The notes under the pieces were generated by a model. That model saw only the letters and a list, made by a program, of their open reading frames with translations, was not told where the DNA came from and did no database searches. Positions 2,945 through 60,875 of a DNA stretch of 64,000 nt are shown in pieces. Made by a program: the position numbers and the translations under genes. Position 1 is the stretch's first letter, and every line of letters starts with the position of its first letter. This DNA is from Labia minor (lineage: Eukaryota > Arthropoda > Insecta > Dermaptera > Spongiphoridae), in assembly GCA_963082975.1 (NCBI GenBank), contig OY720345.1, forward strand, positions 29,458,611-29,522,610, written 5' to 3'.

Positions 2945-4188
2945 TAGTATATATATATAGTTAAATTATAAATCATTATATGAATAAACAGCTTTGTTCT
3001 CGATAGATCAATGGAATTAATCGAATTCGCCTGAAAGTTATACCGCCATTGATACATACAAATAGGTATACATATTTATCATGTTGAATATTAATAATCA
3101 TTGATTGATCTTTCTAATTCATATGCATTGAATGTAAAAAAGCAAAATTACTACAAAGAATCATCAACATCCAAAATCATAAGCTAAATAAACCGATTTA
3201 TTCTTCGAATAAATTTTTTCCAGATTAATGAGTTGTAACCATATATAAGTATATATTTCAAATCAAATCTAAATAGATTAATAAAATAGAAAATTATTTT
3301 ACCTATTTTTATAATAATGCTATTTTTTTCAAAAAAAAAAAAAAAATTAAAATGTAATACTTAATTTATATAAGTACCATGCGAAATTTAAATTTCACCT
3401 GTTTCAAAGCATGACATCTCTTAATCAATTTCTTGTTATTTAAATGAAAAAAAAAACGAAGAATGAAAAGATATAGTAGGAGAGGGAGTGAATATGAAGC
3501 ATGAAGCTTTTTTTATATATGGAGCATCAGGGAATTTTGTTTTGGCCAAGGTCCAAAATTCAAATCACTTTTTCACATTCTATTTTAATTTTGACATTCT
3601 TCTTTTTTCAAATGTTCATAAGAGAAATACCTGAATGTCATACGCATTAATTTATTTAAAAATGTCTTTTAAAAAGATTTTTAGATAATTAATATAAAAT
3701 ATGTTTATACAATATACATATATATATATATAAACTAAAAAAATAATCATTTCATTAAGTTCATTAATGAAAAATAAAATGGTAACGAGGGAAATAGTTT
3801 TAGAATTGATATAGTAATAATTGAATGGCTTTATAAAAGTAAATTGAGATGGCCCTGTGGTGTTCCCATGGCGGGTTACCCCATTGGCATGCATGTTTCT
3901 TTCTTTACATTTTATTTTAGCTATTTTTATACGCTGAACTAAGCTTAAAGAGAGTCACAGACACCCGAGAGAATAAATAACACAACGAAACGATCACCAA
4001 CAAAAACTACTATAAATGTGTAAATTCAGAGAATTCAGCGGTGAAAAATGAAAAAAAAATAAATACATGTACACATTGAAAAAAATATAAAAACAAACAA
4101 CTTAAGCTTTGACTTGATCAAAAAAAAAAATTATATATTTTAAGTATGGCTAGGAAATAAAAAATAAGCTGGAGTGTCTCCACTCGAC
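2945..4188. other. AT-rich stretch without recognised genes
   Basis: Contains a poly-A tract near 3331-3347 and an AT microsatellite near 3718-3734. Short ORFs are low-complexity. No gene seen. Confidence 0.6.
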
Positions 4189-4739
4189 TATCTCGCAACT
4201 TGGATTGGATTAAATAACATATATTATATTTAAATTAAATTTAATTAATTAAATTATAAAAATTAATAAATAATATTTATTAAACCAGCGTATGTTTGGC
4301 TCTTTGTTGATGGCACCACGAATACGTGCTGGCGCCTGATTTGCAGTGTTAAAAAATTAATTCTGGTACTTTCAGCAATTCAATCAAGCTGAAATTCTAT
4401 ATATAGCAGTTTTATATAATTTTTAATCATGTGAAAAATTATCAAATATATATCTTTATTTTTACGGTCACTTTAGAGGAAAACAAATCAAATCGTGGAA
4501 GGTAGTGACCCTCTTCCGACTGAGCTACATTACTCAAAAGTTGATAGAAAACTACGAATTTTGAATAATGCCCATAGACCATATTTCATGATTCTAAATC
4601 AAATCGTTTTTGCTATATAAACACATACACACATACATATATATAAATATATACAGACATTTTTCTCTGCCTTGGTGAAAATGACTCAGGGACCTTCAAA
4701 ACGTATAAAAACATCAAAATCTCGACATCGAAAATTTTC
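4189..4739. repeat. Dispersed repeat R1, uninterrupted copy
   Basis: This ~550-bp unit recurs at 32995-34199. It starts near TATCTCGCAACTTGGATTGG, includes the segment around GTGCTGGCGCCTGATTTGCA, and ends ACATCGAAAATTTTC. On the minus strand TAGCTCAGTCGG (4517-4528 reversed) is a good tRNA A-box match, and a degraded B-box-like stretch follows, so a tRNA-derived SINE origin is possible. CTTTAGAG at 4471-4478 is the empty counterpart of the hAT insertion site in the second copy. Confidence 0.8.
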
Positions 4740-11952: not shown

Positions 11953-12274
11953 CAGTGATTCTCAACTTTTTTTTACCTCGGCAGACTTTTAACGGTTTAA
12001 GCGGCACACAAAGAAAAAGATAACTGTAAAAGTTTACCATATTGAAAAAAAATGGTCCCAAAAACGGTTTACCTTTTTTTTCGTTAGAACCATATTGAAA
12101 AAATTTAGAAAGAATGTTTAAAAGCCTAGTCCCAAAAACGTTTTACCTTTTTTTTTTTGTGAGAAAATTTAGAAAAAAAGTTGGAAATGTTTAAGAGCCT
12201 CATAATCTCGCTGCACACTTTTGAAAATCTCGCGGCACACTAAAGTGCCGCGGCACAGTGGTTGAGAATCACTG
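11953..12274. mobile_element. Non-autonomous hAT-like element
   Basis: Termini CAGTGATTCTCAAC on the left and GTTGAGAATCACTG on the right are perfect inverted repeats, flanked by a perfect 8-bp duplication ACCTAAAG (11945-11952 and 12275-12282), as expected for hAT transposition. Subterminal GCGGCACAC is also mirrored. The interior has two tandem copies of an AT-rich module (ACC, T-run, ACCATATTGAAAAA, then ATGTTTAA), seen in other hAT elements of this window. No coding sequence. Confidence 0.9.
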
Positions 12275-32320: not shown

Positions 32321-32994
32321 GTCAACATTTACCGTCTCTTGTCCCTTATCAGTTTATGTCAATAGAAAGACTCAGATGAAACGTTTTAAATGAATGAATG
32401 AAATAAATAAGGGAAACCATGACCTACTCCCACTCATTTCAAAGAAAGGCTTCCACAATTTATCTTTAGGTATTCTTATCAACATTTGAATATCCTGCTA
32501 TTTATTTTGATATTGAAATAATTAGAATCTAAAAGATCGATAAAATATTAACCAAACTATAATGTTTTTTTTAATTTGTTTAATACGTCAAATATAGTGA
32601 ATTCGATAATAATTATGAAATCTAAAATATATTTTTAAAAAAATATTCATTATTTAAATAGATTTTATAATAATATATTTTTGAAATTTAATAAAAAAAA
32701 AAATTTTATACTAAAAACTCAAATTTCTGCTGAATTGCTCTGTCCCATAATTTATTTAATTAGTCAGTTCAAAATTGTTTTTTTAAGATAAGTATTGATA
32801 CATGAGTGAGTTTTTTCTTGGAAATTAAACAGTTTAAAGAACAGGAAGCAACATTACTAATCTGAAGATAACAAGTTCAAAGCAGTTTGCGAATCATCAC
32901 TGATATACACCTATATATACACAAGATAATTAACAATGAAGTTATACCTTAGAAATTTAAAGAAAATATCTGAAGTGTTCAATTCAAATTGCGA
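32321..32994. other. AT-rich stretch without recognised genes
   Basis: Low-complexity DNA, no gene or terminal repeats recognised. Confidence 0.55.
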
Positions 32995-33307
32995 GATAGT
33001 CGAGTGGAGCTATCTCGCAATTTGAATTGGATTAAATAACATATATTTTATTTAAATTAACTTTATTATAAATTATAAATTAAAATTAATAAATAATATT
33101 TACTAAACTAGCGCGAGTTGGGCTCTTTGTTGATGGCACTACGTCACGTGCTGGCGCGTGATTTGCAGTAGTGTTAAAAAATTAATTCCGGTACTTTCAG
33201 CGATTCAATCACGCTGAAATTCTATACAAAGCAGTTTAATACAATTTTTAATCATATGAAAAACTATCAAATATATACATATCTTTATTTTTACGGTGAG
33301 TTTAGAG

Positions 33308-33547
33308 CAGGGGTAGGCAAATATTTTTAAGCGCGGGCCAAAATGAAATTTTCAAAATGTTTCCCGGGCCGGAGGACCATATTGAAAATACCAAACCGGA
33401 ACATTTGTAAAAAAAATTACCCTTTTTTAGAGCCATATTGAATGAAAGATCGAAATAAGAGCCAAACTTTTTCAACGGGCAGGCGGGTCGGATAAAATAA
33501 GCAAAAGGGCCGGATCCGGCCCGCGGGCCGGCTTTTGCCCAACCATG
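33308..33547. mobile_element. hAT-like element A
   Basis: Starts CAGGGGTAGGCAAATATTTT, ends TTTTGCCCAACCATG, flanked by GTTTAGAG (33300-33307) and GTTAAGAG (33548-33555). A relative is at 62494-62700 (shared GGCCGGAGGACCATATT). GC-rich ends mirror GCGGGCC. The interior has one copy of the shared AT-rich module. No coding sequence. Confidence 0.8.
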
Positions 33548-33555
33548 GTTAAGAG

Positions 33556-33834
33556 CAGGCCTTCTTAAAATATGGGTCACGACCCCAAAGAGGGTCGCGT
33601 AGCAAAATTCTGGAGGCGCGAGAGATTTTAATGTCAAATATTTAAATACACGATTTTGTGAACTATAATAAATATATTTTTACAACTTTTTGTGCAATTT
33701 TTAATTTTAGATTTATATGTATGTATATTGTTACCTAATAAATAAATCATCAAAAATTTTTTATATATCTTTCTTTTATATTTATACGGGGTCGCCAGGA
33801 AACTCGCAATCATAAATGGGAATAAGAAGCCCTG
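33556..33834. mobile_element. hAT-like element B
   Basis: Inverted ends CAGGCCTTCTTA and TAAGAAGCCCTG, flanked by GTTAAGAG (33548-33555) and GTTTAGAG (33835-33842). Subterminal GGGTCACGACCCC on the left and GGGGTCGCC on the right are mirrored. AT-rich interior, no coding sequence. Confidence 0.8.
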
Positions 33835-33842
33835 GTTTAGAG

Positions 33843-33916
33843 CATAGGTTCCCAAACTTTTTTGTGTCGTTTTTTTTTTTTATTCGCTGCCATGGACCAC
33901 TTTGGGAACCTCTAAA
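33843..33916. mobile_element. hAT-like element C (short)
   Basis: A 74-bp element. The left end CATAGGTTCCCAAACTTTTT matches the family of 25337-25696; the right end is TTTGGGAACCTCTAAA. Flanks GTTTAGAG (33835-33842) and CTTTAGAG (33917-33924). The exact right end is uncertain by a few bases. Confidence 0.65.
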
Positions 33917-34199
33917 CTTTAGAGGAAAAAAATGAAAATGTGGTAGGTAATGACCCTCTTCCGGATGAGCTATATTTCTCAAAAGTTGATAGAAAACTAC
34001 GAATTTTGAATAATGTAAAAATTTCGAATATACCAAATTTCATTACTCTAGCTCAAACCGTTTTTGCGTAATCTTGTCTACATACATACATACACATACA
34101 CAGAGAGAGAGAGAGAGACAGACATTTTTCTCAACCTTAGTGAAAATGACTCAGGGACAAACATATAAAAACATCAAAATCTCGACATCGAAAATTTTC

Positions 34200-59100: not shown

Positions 59101-60875
59101 CCACTTGGAGGGGAAAGGGGAGGGTAGTGCCTTCTTTGGGAATCATTGTTCTAGGTCAGAGGTTCTTAAACTGTGGTCCGCGGACCCCTGGGGGTCCGCG
59201 AAGCCTTTAATGGGGGTCCGCAAAGCCATCGTACAGGTGCACGAGAAAATGATGAGTCAGTTAAAACTTTAATTAATATAAAAGAAGCGATGGCATGGCT
59301 TTGTGAGGAAACAGAGATCAAATACCCAAATTCAACGAAATGTGCAAGAAAACTATTGCTACCGTTTCCATCTTCATATTTAGCTGAATTTTCTTTCTTC
59401 AATATTATAATTTCTAATAAAATGTGTTCTACTATATGCAAAAAAATCGTTATTCACCAATCACTGTTAGAAATATCCATCATATATCCTTGTTCTTATG
59501 AGATCGTAAGCCAGAAATTAACTAATAAAATGACGTAAAGTACCTAAAGTTGGGATGGGGTCCGTCAAAAATTTTTTTTTCAAGTGGGGGTCCGCGGAGC
59601 ACAAAGGTTTAAGAACCTCTGTTCTAGGTTAAATACGATTCGTCATAAGGATTAAGTTTTAAATGGAAAATTTCAATCTTATGTTATTTCCGTGTTAAGG
59701 TTTCCATTTAAAACTTAATCCTTATTATATTCTATATTTACTCTAGAATTTTGTCCTAACATAGAAATTCTGCCCTTTAACTTGTAATCAGCTACTTTAA
59801 CCAGCTACTTCTGTTTCTTTTCCCAATCTCTTGGAAATGTGAATTTGTCAGATAAATAAACCTAGAAGATATCTGTGGATACCGTTCCGTACGCACTGTT
59901 ATAATCGTTAGCTTATATTATACGTCTAAACATTTGGAATGCGCATAAAACAAGAACTATATAAATTGAAACTATCAAATAAATATAAAACTTTTATTTT
60001 TACTATTTATTAATCTTGATCGTGTATGCATAAATTAGTTCTTTCGATCTGGCATAGGGAAAAGATTCCTTTAGAATGGCAGGAGGCAGTTATTATCCCA
60101 CTCTTTAAGAAGGTTTATAGAACCAACTGCAATAACTACAGAGGATTTCTCTTTTGACTTTTAGGTAACGAGAGTAGATTTAGAGTATTTGAGAATAGGA
60201 TTCTGCGAAGCATTTATGGGCCGAAGAAAGATGAGATCACCGGGGAATGGATGAGAATGCATAACGAGGAATTGCATGACCTCTAAGCATCTCCAGATAT
60301 AATATTAATTAGAATTATAAAATCGAGAAGCCTGCGGTGGGCAGGACACGTGGCTAGAATGGGGGGGAAAGAATGGCGAAAAATATATTGGGGGGAGACC
60401 GAGTGGGAAACGCCCTCTTGGAAGACCAAGGACGGGGTGGGTGGATAATGTAGGAAGGGAAATGAGAGAGATGGGAGAGGAGAGGGATTGGTGGGTTGTG
60501 GCTCAGAATAGGGAAACTCGGTGAAGTGTGGTTGCTGAGGCCAAGAACTTTCGAGTTCCGTAGAGCCATAGAGATATATAGATTAATCTTGATATTTTCA
60601 AAAACTAGTTTAACTAATTATATAGTTAATATATTTATTTTATAATTGATATTCATTGATAATTTATTTATCAACTTTAATTGTAGCATTTAATAAAATC
60701 CGAAATCAATGTGAATGAAATTCAAATTAACACTGAAAGATTTTATGATTCATCTACAAGAAATCAACTCATTCTCCAAAAACAAAAAGATTTTGTAAAT
60801 TCCAATGAAATAAACAAAAATCAAGCGATTGATACTCCAAAATTCAGGGAAGATTCAAACCCCTCAGCTCCATAG
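46970..60875 (+). CDS. Amt/Mep-family ammonium transporter-like protein, seven exons
   Basis: Joining 46970-47140, 51693-51935, 54628-54741, 56439-56784, 57612-57847, 57903-58136 and 60687-60875 gives 1,533 nt, 510 residues plus TAG. Every junction is GT-AG and keeps frame. Amt proteins conduct ammonium or ammonia across membranes, usually as trimers with 11 helices; about 10-11 hydrophobic segments are seen, with a hydrophilic tail of about 100 residues. Family landmarks: FGYNKWIW (91-98), HWTWHQDGWL (153-162), LSFHDQGGGF (171-180, Asp175 at the conserved vestibule Asp), CIRAGLAGVVLLLPG (289-303), SEDYCNILEVHL (335-346, His345 at the second twin-His). The first twin-His position is Gln183. 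The usual FNxGS of helix 5 reads AIPLP (233-237). The family call is secure in outline; transport function is not, given these changes. Introns 1-4 and 6 are 0.8-4.6 kb and transposon-rich; intron 5 is 55 bp. The start is the first ATG after an in-frame TAA (46925), with A at -3. An untranslated first exon may lie upstream. Confidence 0.85.
48807..49044. mobile_element. hAT-like element in intron 1
   Basis: Starts CAGGGCTGGTTCTAGGATTG and ends ATTATCCAACATTG, flanked by CTAAGAGG (48799-48806) and CTAAGAGA (49045-49052), 7 of 8 matching. Mirrored GCGCCC blocks sit near both ends. AT-rich interior. Confidence 0.6.
50695..50714. repeat. CA microsatellite
   Basis: Ten CA units in intron 1. Confidence 0.9.
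51693..51935 (+). CDS. Transporter exon 2 (residues 58-138)
   Basis: Acceptor TTTGTTTTAG|TGT. Encodes CIVFQNLVDIGVTSLAFFLI (helix 2, the N-VD pattern of Amt is kept as QNLVD), GFPLAFG, an extracellular-type loop with IFGYNKWIW, and helix 3 ending TMTVGRMHPLGYTL, where the family has AERxxF. Donor CTC|GTAAGT, phase 0. Confidence 0.85.
52488..52660. mobile_element. Mariner 5'-end fragment in intron 2
   Basis: CAATTTAGTG, AATACCTTGAAATTTTAA, ACTTGTTTTCAC and TTTCTTGCCTACCAG appear in the same order as at 7400-7520, so this is the same family. No transposase coding left. Confidence 0.6.
53912..54516 (-). repeat. Dispersed repeat R2, long copy in intron 2
   Basis: The left end (CCGAACCGACCGACGGTTTA) and right end (TCGTCGATCGGTAAAAATC) correspond to the reversed copy at 20829-21090. 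Its terminal ~95 bp is duplicated in tandem-like fashion (54150-54245 and 54415-54515, ATGCATGATTCGTGG-type). A GGAC microsatellite is at about 54371-54388. It ends about 110 bp before exon 3. Confidence 0.75.
54083..54110. promoter_or_regulatory. Pair of CRE-type palindromes
   Basis: TGACGTCA occurs at 54083-54090 and again at 54103-54110 within a near-tandem repeat (GGCTGTGACGTCATGAAT and GGCTGGATGACGTCAT). The core is a textbook CREB/ATF site. It lies inside repeat R2 in intron 2, so a role in the transporter gene is unproven. Confidence 0.4.
54628..54741 (+). CDS. Transporter exon 3 (residues 139-176)
   Basis: Acceptor ATATATAG|ATC. The competing AG 14 bp further on would break the frame. 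Encodes helix 4 IYLISAGLVHPLILHWTW and HQDGWLRLEMLN, ending SFHDQ with Asp175. Donor CAG|GTGAAT, phase 0. Confidence 0.85.
54976..55481 (-). mobile_element. Internally deleted mariner in intron 3
   Basis: Same family and size class as 5849-6377. The right terminus is the complement of CGAGGGCAGATCAATAAGTC, the left terminus has a ~12-bp deletion (CGAGAGAGAGTCCGTGAC), and TA flanks at 54974-54975 and 55482-55483. The transposase remnant is scrambled; only DEIISQT and LDKSYF-like scraps remain. Confidence 0.8.
55620..56020 (-). pseudogene. Unidentified coding-like stretch in intron 3
   Basis: Less AT-rich than the intron. On the minus strand one frame reads SKQAIDTLDEEASVLIEEP to a stop. A later stretch reads TLPYSKAEIEYQAPPMWHSV, then LLLNYVALLVAVVDQTGYGK, with an overlapping frame ending LREIRSLIKDIFKGGFV and stop. 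AATAAA follows near 55648. This looks like the 3' end of a decayed gene or processed copy. I cannot name it. Confidence 0.3.
56439..56784 (+). CDS. Transporter exon 4 (residues 177-291)
   Basis: Acceptor TTTTCCAG|GGA. Encodes GGGFICQVYGSIWACVGM (helix 5 start, Gln183 at the twin-His position), LGRRIIRL, and a second helix LLGYILLTGGILAIPLPTL. Then NGIIAFATGLVGEII and the loop to LRCIR. Donor AGAG|GTGAGT, phase 1. Its composition is clearly less AT-rich than the introns. Confidence 0.9.
57128..57255 (+). mobile_element. Diverged retrotransposon 3' tail in intron 4
   Basis: GGTGGACATGAGGAAATTTG, then TAGCTCAAAAAATGAACG and GAGATAGATCGATTTATC. The layout resembles N1 tails but with much divergence. 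Confidence 0.4.
57612..57847 (+). CDS. Transporter exon 5 (residues 292-370)
   Basis: Acceptor TTTCATTTCAG|CTG. Encodes AGLAGVVLLLPGIDTYHP, helix ALLLSLLGTLLFVWNS, then SEDYCNILEVHLVPGLLG (family pattern DDxxDxxxVHxxxGxxG, second twin-His as His345) and TLLAPIFA. Donor CCG|GTAATT, phase 0. Confidence 0.9.
57903..58136 (+). CDS. Transporter exon 6 (residues 371-448)
   Basis: Acceptor TGCTTTTTAG|CTT after a 55-bp intron. Encodes the last membrane helix (RRIGWQFFAIFFLTTFITL, then ALATLVFITCAK) and the start of the cytoplasmic tail with RLFPIGSTSVVLQPGK. Donor AAG|GTAAAA, phase 0. Reading on into the intron would add about 31 residues before TAA at 58230, a possible alternative end. Confidence 0.85.
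58467..58758. mobile_element. Non-autonomous hAT-like element in intron 6
   Basis: Perfect inverted ends CAGTGGCGTA and TACGCCACTG, and a perfect 8-bp duplication CCTAGGTT (58459-58466 and 58759-58766). GCGCCC/GGGCGC blocks are mirrored inside. No coding sequence. Well preserved, so probably young. Confidence 0.9.
59157..59621 (+). mobile_element. hAT element with residual transposase in intron 6
   Basis: Perfect inverted ends CAGAGGTTCTTAAAC and GTTTAAGAACCTCTG, with a perfect duplication TTCTAGGT (59149-59156 and 59622-59629). Subterminal GGGGGTCCGCG is repeated and mirrored. It keeps the 3' part of its transposase gene, so it links the non-coding hAT elements here to a real hAT source. 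Confidence 0.9.
59239..59538 (+). pseudogene. hAT transposase C-terminal (dimerisation) remnant
   Basis: The open reading includes CARKLLLPFPSSYLAEFSFF and NIIISNK, matching the C-terminal hAT dimerisation motif, whose family pattern is LPFxTTYLCExGFSxLxxIKxK. It then runs SLLEISIIYPCSYEIV to a stop at 59538. The BED zinc finger and catalytic core are absent. The element type is close to the ZBED-like hAT group, judged by eye only. Confidence 0.75.
60023..60580 (+). mobile_element. Non-LTR family N1 copy with internal deletion
   Basis: Reads IPLEWQEAVIIPLFKK and RTNCNNYRGF, an early reverse-transcriptase block. It then jumps directly to NESRFRVFENRILRSIYGPK, GEWMRMHNEELHDL and SLRWAGHVARMGG, the C-terminal region, so most of the RT domain is deleted. 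It ends in AAGAACTTTCGAGTTCCGTA and a short GATA-like tail about 100 bp before exon 7. Stops and frameshifts abound. Confidence 0.85.
60687..60875 (+). CDS. Transporter exon 7, C-terminal tail (residues 449-510)
   Basis: Acceptor AATTGTAG|CAT. Encodes a hydrophilic Asn/Lys/Glu/Gln-rich tail, HLIKSEINVNEIQINTERFY to NPSAP and TAG. No domain, but frame and phase fit and the composition is coding-like. Less certain than the membrane exons. Confidence 0.7.
   Translation, partial: HLIKSEINVNEIQINTERFYDSSTRNQLILQKQKDFVNSNEINKNQAIDTPKFREDSNPSAP

What the first reader, a model, noticed from the sequence alone, without database searches (positions are those of the whole stretch)
33300..33924. Three hAT elements end to end, each at the same octamer, with an empty site in the same window
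Elements A (33308-33547), B (33556-33834) and C (33843-33916) have different termini but are separated by single copies of GTTTAGAG or GTTAAGAG, and the series ends at CTTTAGAG. The paralogous R1 repeat at 4471-4478 shows the uninterrupted CTTTAGAG. The simplest history is serial insertion, each new element landing in the target duplication left by the previous one.
Basis: seen in the sequence. Interest (0 to 1): 0.75.

Follow-up and report, generated by a model that had tools for sequence, protein, structure and literature searches.

The report
hAT transposons stacked at one octamer
Three small cut-and-paste transposons sit end to end because each landed in the 8-base duplication left by a neighbour, and the same stacking recurs at dozens of places in this genome, more often than the 8-base sequence alone would predict.

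Summary
A, B and C belong to three separate short hAT families and are joined by single octamers. Both flanks belong to repeat R1, whose other copy at 4471-4478 is uninterrupted. Elsewhere A and B have their own private 8-bp duplications. No fixed A-B-C composite turned up among the places examined, an incomplete test. Serial insertion is the best reading.

The locus is one case of a genome-wide pattern. From a family-C end to another hAT start (CANNGGT), spacers of 4-12 bp were allowed: 51 of 56 matches have exactly 8, and 50 of those 51 octamers have a TA core. I read two of five further arrays as three-element. The target consensus is nTYTARAn. R1 carries a near-optimal octamer and is a recurrent landing site: 110 filled, 16,512 empty for an exact flank.

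Octamers beside a family-C end are occupied more often: 16 of 136 in the best class, against 0.66% in R1. Octamer sequence alone therefore does not explain the stacking. Whether resident ends attract newcomers, or unmeasured accessibility is responsible, is open, as is the window's insertion order.

The parts
33010..33307 (+). left part of the R1 repeat copy, up to and including the first octamer
   Evidence: 87% identical to window 4188-4478
33300..33307 (.). octamer 1, GTTTAGAG (left outer duplication)
   Evidence: sequence; R1 alignment
33308..33547 (+). element A, short hAT (240 bp), termini CAGGGGTAGGCAAA / TTTGCCCAACCATG
   Evidence: 28 rows at 27 loci (L020 twice), window included; 20 of 28 rows have identical octamers on both sides, 3 differ at one base (window among them), 5 do not match; window copy 93% to the computed family consensus
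33548..33555 (.). octamer 2, GTTAAGAG (one change from octamers 1 and 3)
   Evidence: sequence
33556..33834 (+). element B, short hAT (279 bp), termini CAGGCCTTCTTAAA / AATAAGAAGCCCTG
   Evidence: 14 rows including the window; matching octamer pair read by eye in 9 of the 13 others, one of them with two extra bases
33835..33842 (.). octamer 3, GTTTAGAG
   Evidence: sequence
33843..33916 (+). element C, 74-bp shortened member of the CATAGGTTCCCAAAC family; right end irregular (extra AA)
   Evidence: longer copies in L013, L029, L068; the family's 14-base end, with a non-G base at the 16th position beyond it, occurs 949 times in the genome
33917..33924 (.). octamer 4, CTTTAGAG (right outer duplication)
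   Evidence: sequence; R1 alignment
33916..34199 (+). right part of the same R1 repeat copy
   Evidence: 79% identical to window 4470-4739
4188..4739 (+). second R1 copy, uninterrupted (paralogous empty site); octamer CTTTAGAG at 4471-4478

Best explanation
A, B and C are three independent, probably non-autonomous hAT elements that entered one R1 copy one after another. The first landed in the R1 octamer and duplicated it. Each later element landed exactly in one of the octamers flanking a resident element, so n insertions leave n+1 octamers and one octamer between neighbours. Shown: the breakpoints, the private duplications of A and B elsewhere, recurrence of the architecture, and the preference for nTYTARAn. 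Inferred: transposition by Buster-like hAT transposases, and any order at this locus, which the octamer differences do not settle. Two things feed stacking: the shared octamer preference, which makes R1 a landing site, and an additional excess of hATs beside resident family-C ends that octamer class, the next bases and local hAT density do not account for in the limited samples I could examine.
For: R1 breakpoints. Private octamer pairs for A and B copies elsewhere. A copies sitting in R1 octamers (L001, L010, L026, L027) are not each other's closest relatives: L010 is identical over the alignment to L035 at an unrelated site, and L027 is 99.2% to L037, so R1 was hit repeatedly (in L026 only the left R1 flank matches). 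A and B hit the same octamer position of another shared repeat (L019, L046, by eye). Junctions: 4 of 5 at spacer 8 for A ends and 51 of 56 for C ends, reversed controls 0 in both; the 51 show 40 different octamers and 47 different octamer-plus-partner strings. Further arrays L013 (A-C) and L029 (B-C), and L068 to L072. Two-step series L073/L074 to L075/L076. R1: 110 filled, 16,512 empty. C ends of class STYTARAS: 16 of 136 occupied, odds ratio 20, p = 5e-15.
Against: C's right end is not clean (extra AA, octamer changed). One search tested the A-B junction only with the window's decayed A end, and its reversed control gave 1 match. Some junctions are copies of one event: three of the 51 share CACTAGAC, and the two fetched (L075, L076) carry what looks like the same C beside a matching short left flank. 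In the first 100 listed C ends none of the 5 STYTARAS octamers is occupied. No transposase was identified.
Confidence: 0.88

Rival explanations
1. A-B-C is one composite element that moves as a unit between the outer ends of A and C.
For: Outer octamers 1 and 4 differ at one base only. Host repeats can carry an array into several places (L075, L076 look like copies of one event).
Against: In the 625-base search, of 46 matches listed only the window locus covers all three elements (only 40 of 2225 candidates were scored). The one exact A-N8-B junction found is the window's own; the six others, at 2 mismatches, do not look like hAT junctions by eye, and the reversed control gave 1. A and B occur alone with their own duplications. 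Pairs A-C and B-C occur elsewhere with other octamers.
Confidence: 0.04
2. Pure octamer preference: stacking is what independent insertions into good octamers give, and a resident element has no effect of its own; any excess beside hATs reflects more accessible sites.
For: GTTTAGAG and CTTTAGAG weigh about 500-580 times an average site in a simple site model; at an assumed 1 hAT per 5-20 kb it predicts about 2.5-10% re-hits for GTTTAGAG. R1 octamers, hit without a resident neighbour, show that the sequence attracts insertions. Only small samples speak against an accessibility effect.
Against: Counting the same kind of hAT end (CANNGGT) on one side, R1 octamers are occupied in 110 of 16,622 (0.66%), all C ends in 51 of about 1,090, and STYTARAS C ends in 16 of 136. 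For the R1-type octamers alone the excess is weaker: 3 of 55 listed (odds ratio 8.7, p = 0.006). Flanks of A and B copies hold no more loosely matching hAT ends than the random sample: 5 in 63,113 bases against 20 in 200 kb. Next to 80 unoccupied TA-core C ends, A is common at +2 (50 of 80) but C at +1 is not (8) and G at +3 is rare (4), so a CAG end does not complete a better motif.
Confidence: 0.3
3. Recombination between hATs at different loci through the shared octamer, or tandem duplication, built the series.
For: Octamers are shared and R1 is abundant.
Against: A, B and C are different families, so the series is not a duplication. Both flanks continue one R1 copy. Octamers vary across the genome-wide junctions: 40 different octamers in 51.
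Confidence: 0.04

Closest known systems
Mar, a hAT MITE of the Buster family in Drosophila willistoni (PMC3517528; passages seen)
   Same: Termini CAG(G/A)GGTAGGC, as in element A; 8-bp duplication with consensus nnnTAnnn; a MITE
   Different: The terms nested, tandem and adjacent had 0 occurrences in that paper. Here the consensus is tighter (nTYTARAn). Host lineage here is unnamed.
SaTar MULE arrays of guayule and rice (PMC5907723; abstract and two sections read) and pineapple mMITE clusters (PMC8449440; passages seen)
   Same: Linear arrays of different short elements, end to end and not nested inside each other
   Different: MULE / Mutator-like elements linked by microsatellites rather than one octamer; the SaTar authors judge many flanks inconsistent with cut-and-paste. 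Here the spacer is a single duplication of hAT length.
Target motif of hobo in Drosophila melanogaster (PMC3276498; passages seen)
   Same: 8-bp duplication; palindromic motif reaching beyond the duplication
   Different: hobo motif GTNCGNAC; 'nested' had 0 occurrences in that paper

Membership tests
hAT superfamily | 8-bp target site duplication | tested here: met
   A: 20 of 28 rows identical, 3 with one mismatch, 5 not matching; B: 9 of 13 non-window rows, by eye
hAT superfamily | short terminal inverted repeats | tested here: met
   A 11 of 14 and B 11 of 14 terminal positions; C CATAGGTTCCC / GGGAACCTCTA, decayed at the very end
hAT superfamily | mobilised by a hAT transposase | not tested
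   no transposase was sought
Buster branch of hAT | target consensus nnnTAnnn | tested here: met
   TA core in 86 of the first 100 listed C ends and 50 of 51 junction octamers, 12% in the random sample; consensus as quoted in PMC3517528 and PMC3499496
Buster branch of hAT | transposase phylogeny | not tested
   none obtained
composite transposon A-B-C | several loci with the same inner junctions and new outer duplications | tested here: inconclusive
   none among the candidates scored; B-junction search did not complete, consensus A-B junction not searched
SaTar-like modular array | elements linked by microsatellite | tested here: not met
   spacer is one octamer

The most novel reading that the evidence does not exclude
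Resident hAT ends attract new hAT insertions into their flanking duplication across families, so that every insertion makes further insertion beside it more likely and arrays grow by themselves. A possible cause is docking of the incoming transposase complex on the resident end. The difference in occupancy is about 18-fold for the best octamer class (16 of 136 against 0.66%).
Probability: 0.33. Interest if true: 0.72.

Novelty: new variant of a known kind. Interest (0 to 1): 0.5.

Why it matters
The R1 repeat gives more than 16,000 exact copies of one near-optimal octamer in a fixed setting, and family-C ends give octamers of the same class beside a transposon. That is a natural experiment on what guides hAT insertion. 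If resident ends attract newcomers, target choice is not set by the 8-base motif alone, and transposon clusters would partly be self-made.

Tried and rejected
Composite element: no support among candidates scored. Shared descent of R1+A: rejected, because A copies in R1 are as close or closer to A copies at unrelated sites. Extended motif supplied by a CAG end: not supported (of 100 listed rows, those without a TA core and those already followed by a hAT-like start or by the CACTAGAC repeat were dropped, leaving 80). Local hAT clustering: not seen in 63 kb of flanks, a small sample. Order of insertion from the octamer differences: if the ancestral octamer were CTTTAGAG, C would be first, but R1 copies with GTTTAGAG exist, so the order is left open. 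A simple site model gave 0.6-2.5% expected re-hits per average duplication; it counts all hATs at assumed densities and is not directly comparable with the CANNGGT counts. In the 200-kb sample 0 of 2072 oriented nTYTARAn sites were followed by CANNGGT. Not obtained: total A ends, B junctions and the genome count of STTTAGAG-CANNGGT (asked, never answered); the consensus A-B junction (never sent). The figure of about 1,090 C ends is 949 counted divided by 0.87, because that pattern omits ends with G at the last position. The first 100 rows listed all lie in the first 85 Mb of C1 and hold 5 STYTARAS octamers, fewer than the genome-wide 136 of about 1,090, so they are not a random sample. Literature: nine searches listed no paper that I recognised as describing hAT arrays on a shared octamer. 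I saw listings; for six papers (PMC8721813, PMC3276498, PMC4744444, PMC8449440, PMC3517528, PMC3499496) passages; for PMC5907723 the abstract and two sections. No whole paper was read, and subscription journals are mostly not held.

Full report
What is there. The window reads R1-left, GTTTAGAG, A (240 bp), GTTAAGAG, B (279 bp), GTTTAGAG, C (74 bp), CTTTAGAG, R1-right. R1 occurs again at 4188-4739 without interruption, and the two alignments, 87% on the left and 79% on the right, meet at the octamer. The window lies in an unnamed 604-Mb genome, about 26% GC in a 200-kb sample.

The three are separate elements. From the whole-genome search with the 625-base series I read 28 rows of A at 27 loci and 14 rows of B, the window included in both. 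In 20 of 28 A rows the two octamers are identical, in 3 they differ at one base, and in 5 they do not match. For B, 9 of the 13 other rows show a matching pair once the real right end is used, one of them with two extra bases; the rest are truncated or unclear. C belongs to a longer family; one copy lies between CTCTAAAT octamers in L029, next to an inverted B that shares the middle octamer. L013 is A-ATATAAAG-C. L023 looks by eye like A followed by yet another hAT.

Target preference. In the first 100 listed family-C ends, of 949 counted, 39 have an octamer nTYTARAn and 86 a TA core; positions in the 200-kb sample give 0.52% and 12%. Those 100 rows all come from one end of contig C1, so they are not a random sample. 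Copies of A in the R1 octamer are not each other's nearest relatives, so R1 was hit several times. Four of the 100 listed C ends abut R1, two in each orientation (by eye). With an exact R1 left flank, 110 sites are filled by a CANNGGT end and 16,512 have the empty continuation, reversed controls 0: 0.66% occupied.

Arrays genome-wide. An A end followed by 4-12 bases and CANNGGT gives 5 matches, 4 with exactly 8 bases and one with 7. A C end gives 56 matches: 51 with 8, four with 7, one with 11; 50 of the 51 octamers have a TA core. Reversed patterns gave none in these two searches. The 51 junctions hold 40 different octamers. Five arrays were fetched, chosen for octamers of the best class, and L068 also because two junctions lie about 300 bases apart. 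I read L068 and L072 as three-element arrays, L069 and L071 as arrays in R1 octamers, and L070 as two elements within the piece fetched. L071 has an extra CTTTATA beside its octamer, which looks like an excision footprint. These readings are by eye.

A visible series. L073 and L074 carry C alone at CACTAGAC beside a transposase-like gene (PF13843 for the L073 fragment; the right flanks are 99.7% alike). L075 and L076 carry what looks like the same C with a second hAT in its right octamer; only 8 and 14 bases of left flank before the octamer are seen there, and they agree with L073 or nearly so. This shows the proposed steps, and also that not all 51 junctions are independent: three share CACTAGAC.

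Is sequence enough? Occupancy by CANNGGT hATs on one side is 51 of about 1,090 for C ends (4.7%, 95% interval 3.5-6.1%), 16 of 136 for octamers STYTARAS (11.8%, 6.9-18.4%), and 110 of 16,622 in R1 (0.66%, 0.54-0.80%). For the R1-type octamers alone, 3 of 55 listed C ends are occupied (odds ratio 8.7, p = 0.006), or 7 of an estimated 75 (the 75 is extrapolated from the first 100 of 136 rows). Against this: none of the 5 STYTARAS ends in the first 100 rows is occupied. R1 copies look older than A copies if divergence is a guide (most alignments to the window's R1 copy are 80-90%; A pairs average 93%), so R1 has probably not had less time, although the exact-flank R1 copies counted may be the younger ones. 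Flanks of A and B copies are not richer in loosely matching hAT ends than the random sample (5 in 63,113 bases; 20 in 200 kb). Bases beyond the octamer do not favour the CAG of a resident end. So an excess beside resident ends is likely. Its cause is not shown: sites that already took one element may simply be more accessible.

How it works, most likely. A Buster-like hAT transposase cuts out a short element and joins it to a staggered 8-bp break at nTYTARAn. Repair doubles the octamer, and each copy is again a good target. A later element of any family with the same preference enters one of the two. The result is a non-nested chain with one octamer between members. Breakpoints and preference are shown; the enzymology is general knowledge of the hAT superfamily, not tested here.

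Known relatives. Element A resembles the Mar MITE (termini CAG(G/A)GGTAGGC, duplication nnnTAnnn; PMC3517528). Non-nested chains of MULE-type elements are reported in guayule and pineapple, linked by microsatellites (PMC5907723, PMC8449440). I recognised no report of hAT chains on a shared octamer in nine searches of an open-access library, which is weak evidence of novelty.

Limits. Several planned counts did not complete. The window's insertion order is open, and C's right end is irregular.

Noticed in passing
L071, positions 540-554: R1 octamer with an extra CTTTATA (reverse strand) beside CTTTAGAG, next to an array; looks like the footprint of an earlier hAT excision at the same site.
   Followed up: no
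L073-L076: Four loci carry a C insertion at CACTAGAC; in L073 and L074 it lies beside a transposase-like gene (PF13843 for L073), and L075 and L076 also carry a second hAT in C's duplication.
   Followed up: partly
L019 and L046: A and B inserted at the same octamer position of another shared repeat (left flank TTATTTATTTATTCATAA, right flank TATACTTAT, by eye).
   Followed up: no
window 11953-12274 and 59157-59621: Two further hAT-like elements with perfect 14-base termini and identical 8-bp duplications.
   Followed up: no
window 32980-33029: Perfect inverted repeat with 20-base arms overlapping the left edge of the R1 copy.
   Followed up: no
L020: Several partial and inverted A pieces within about 700 bases, besides a nearly full copy.
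   Followed up: no
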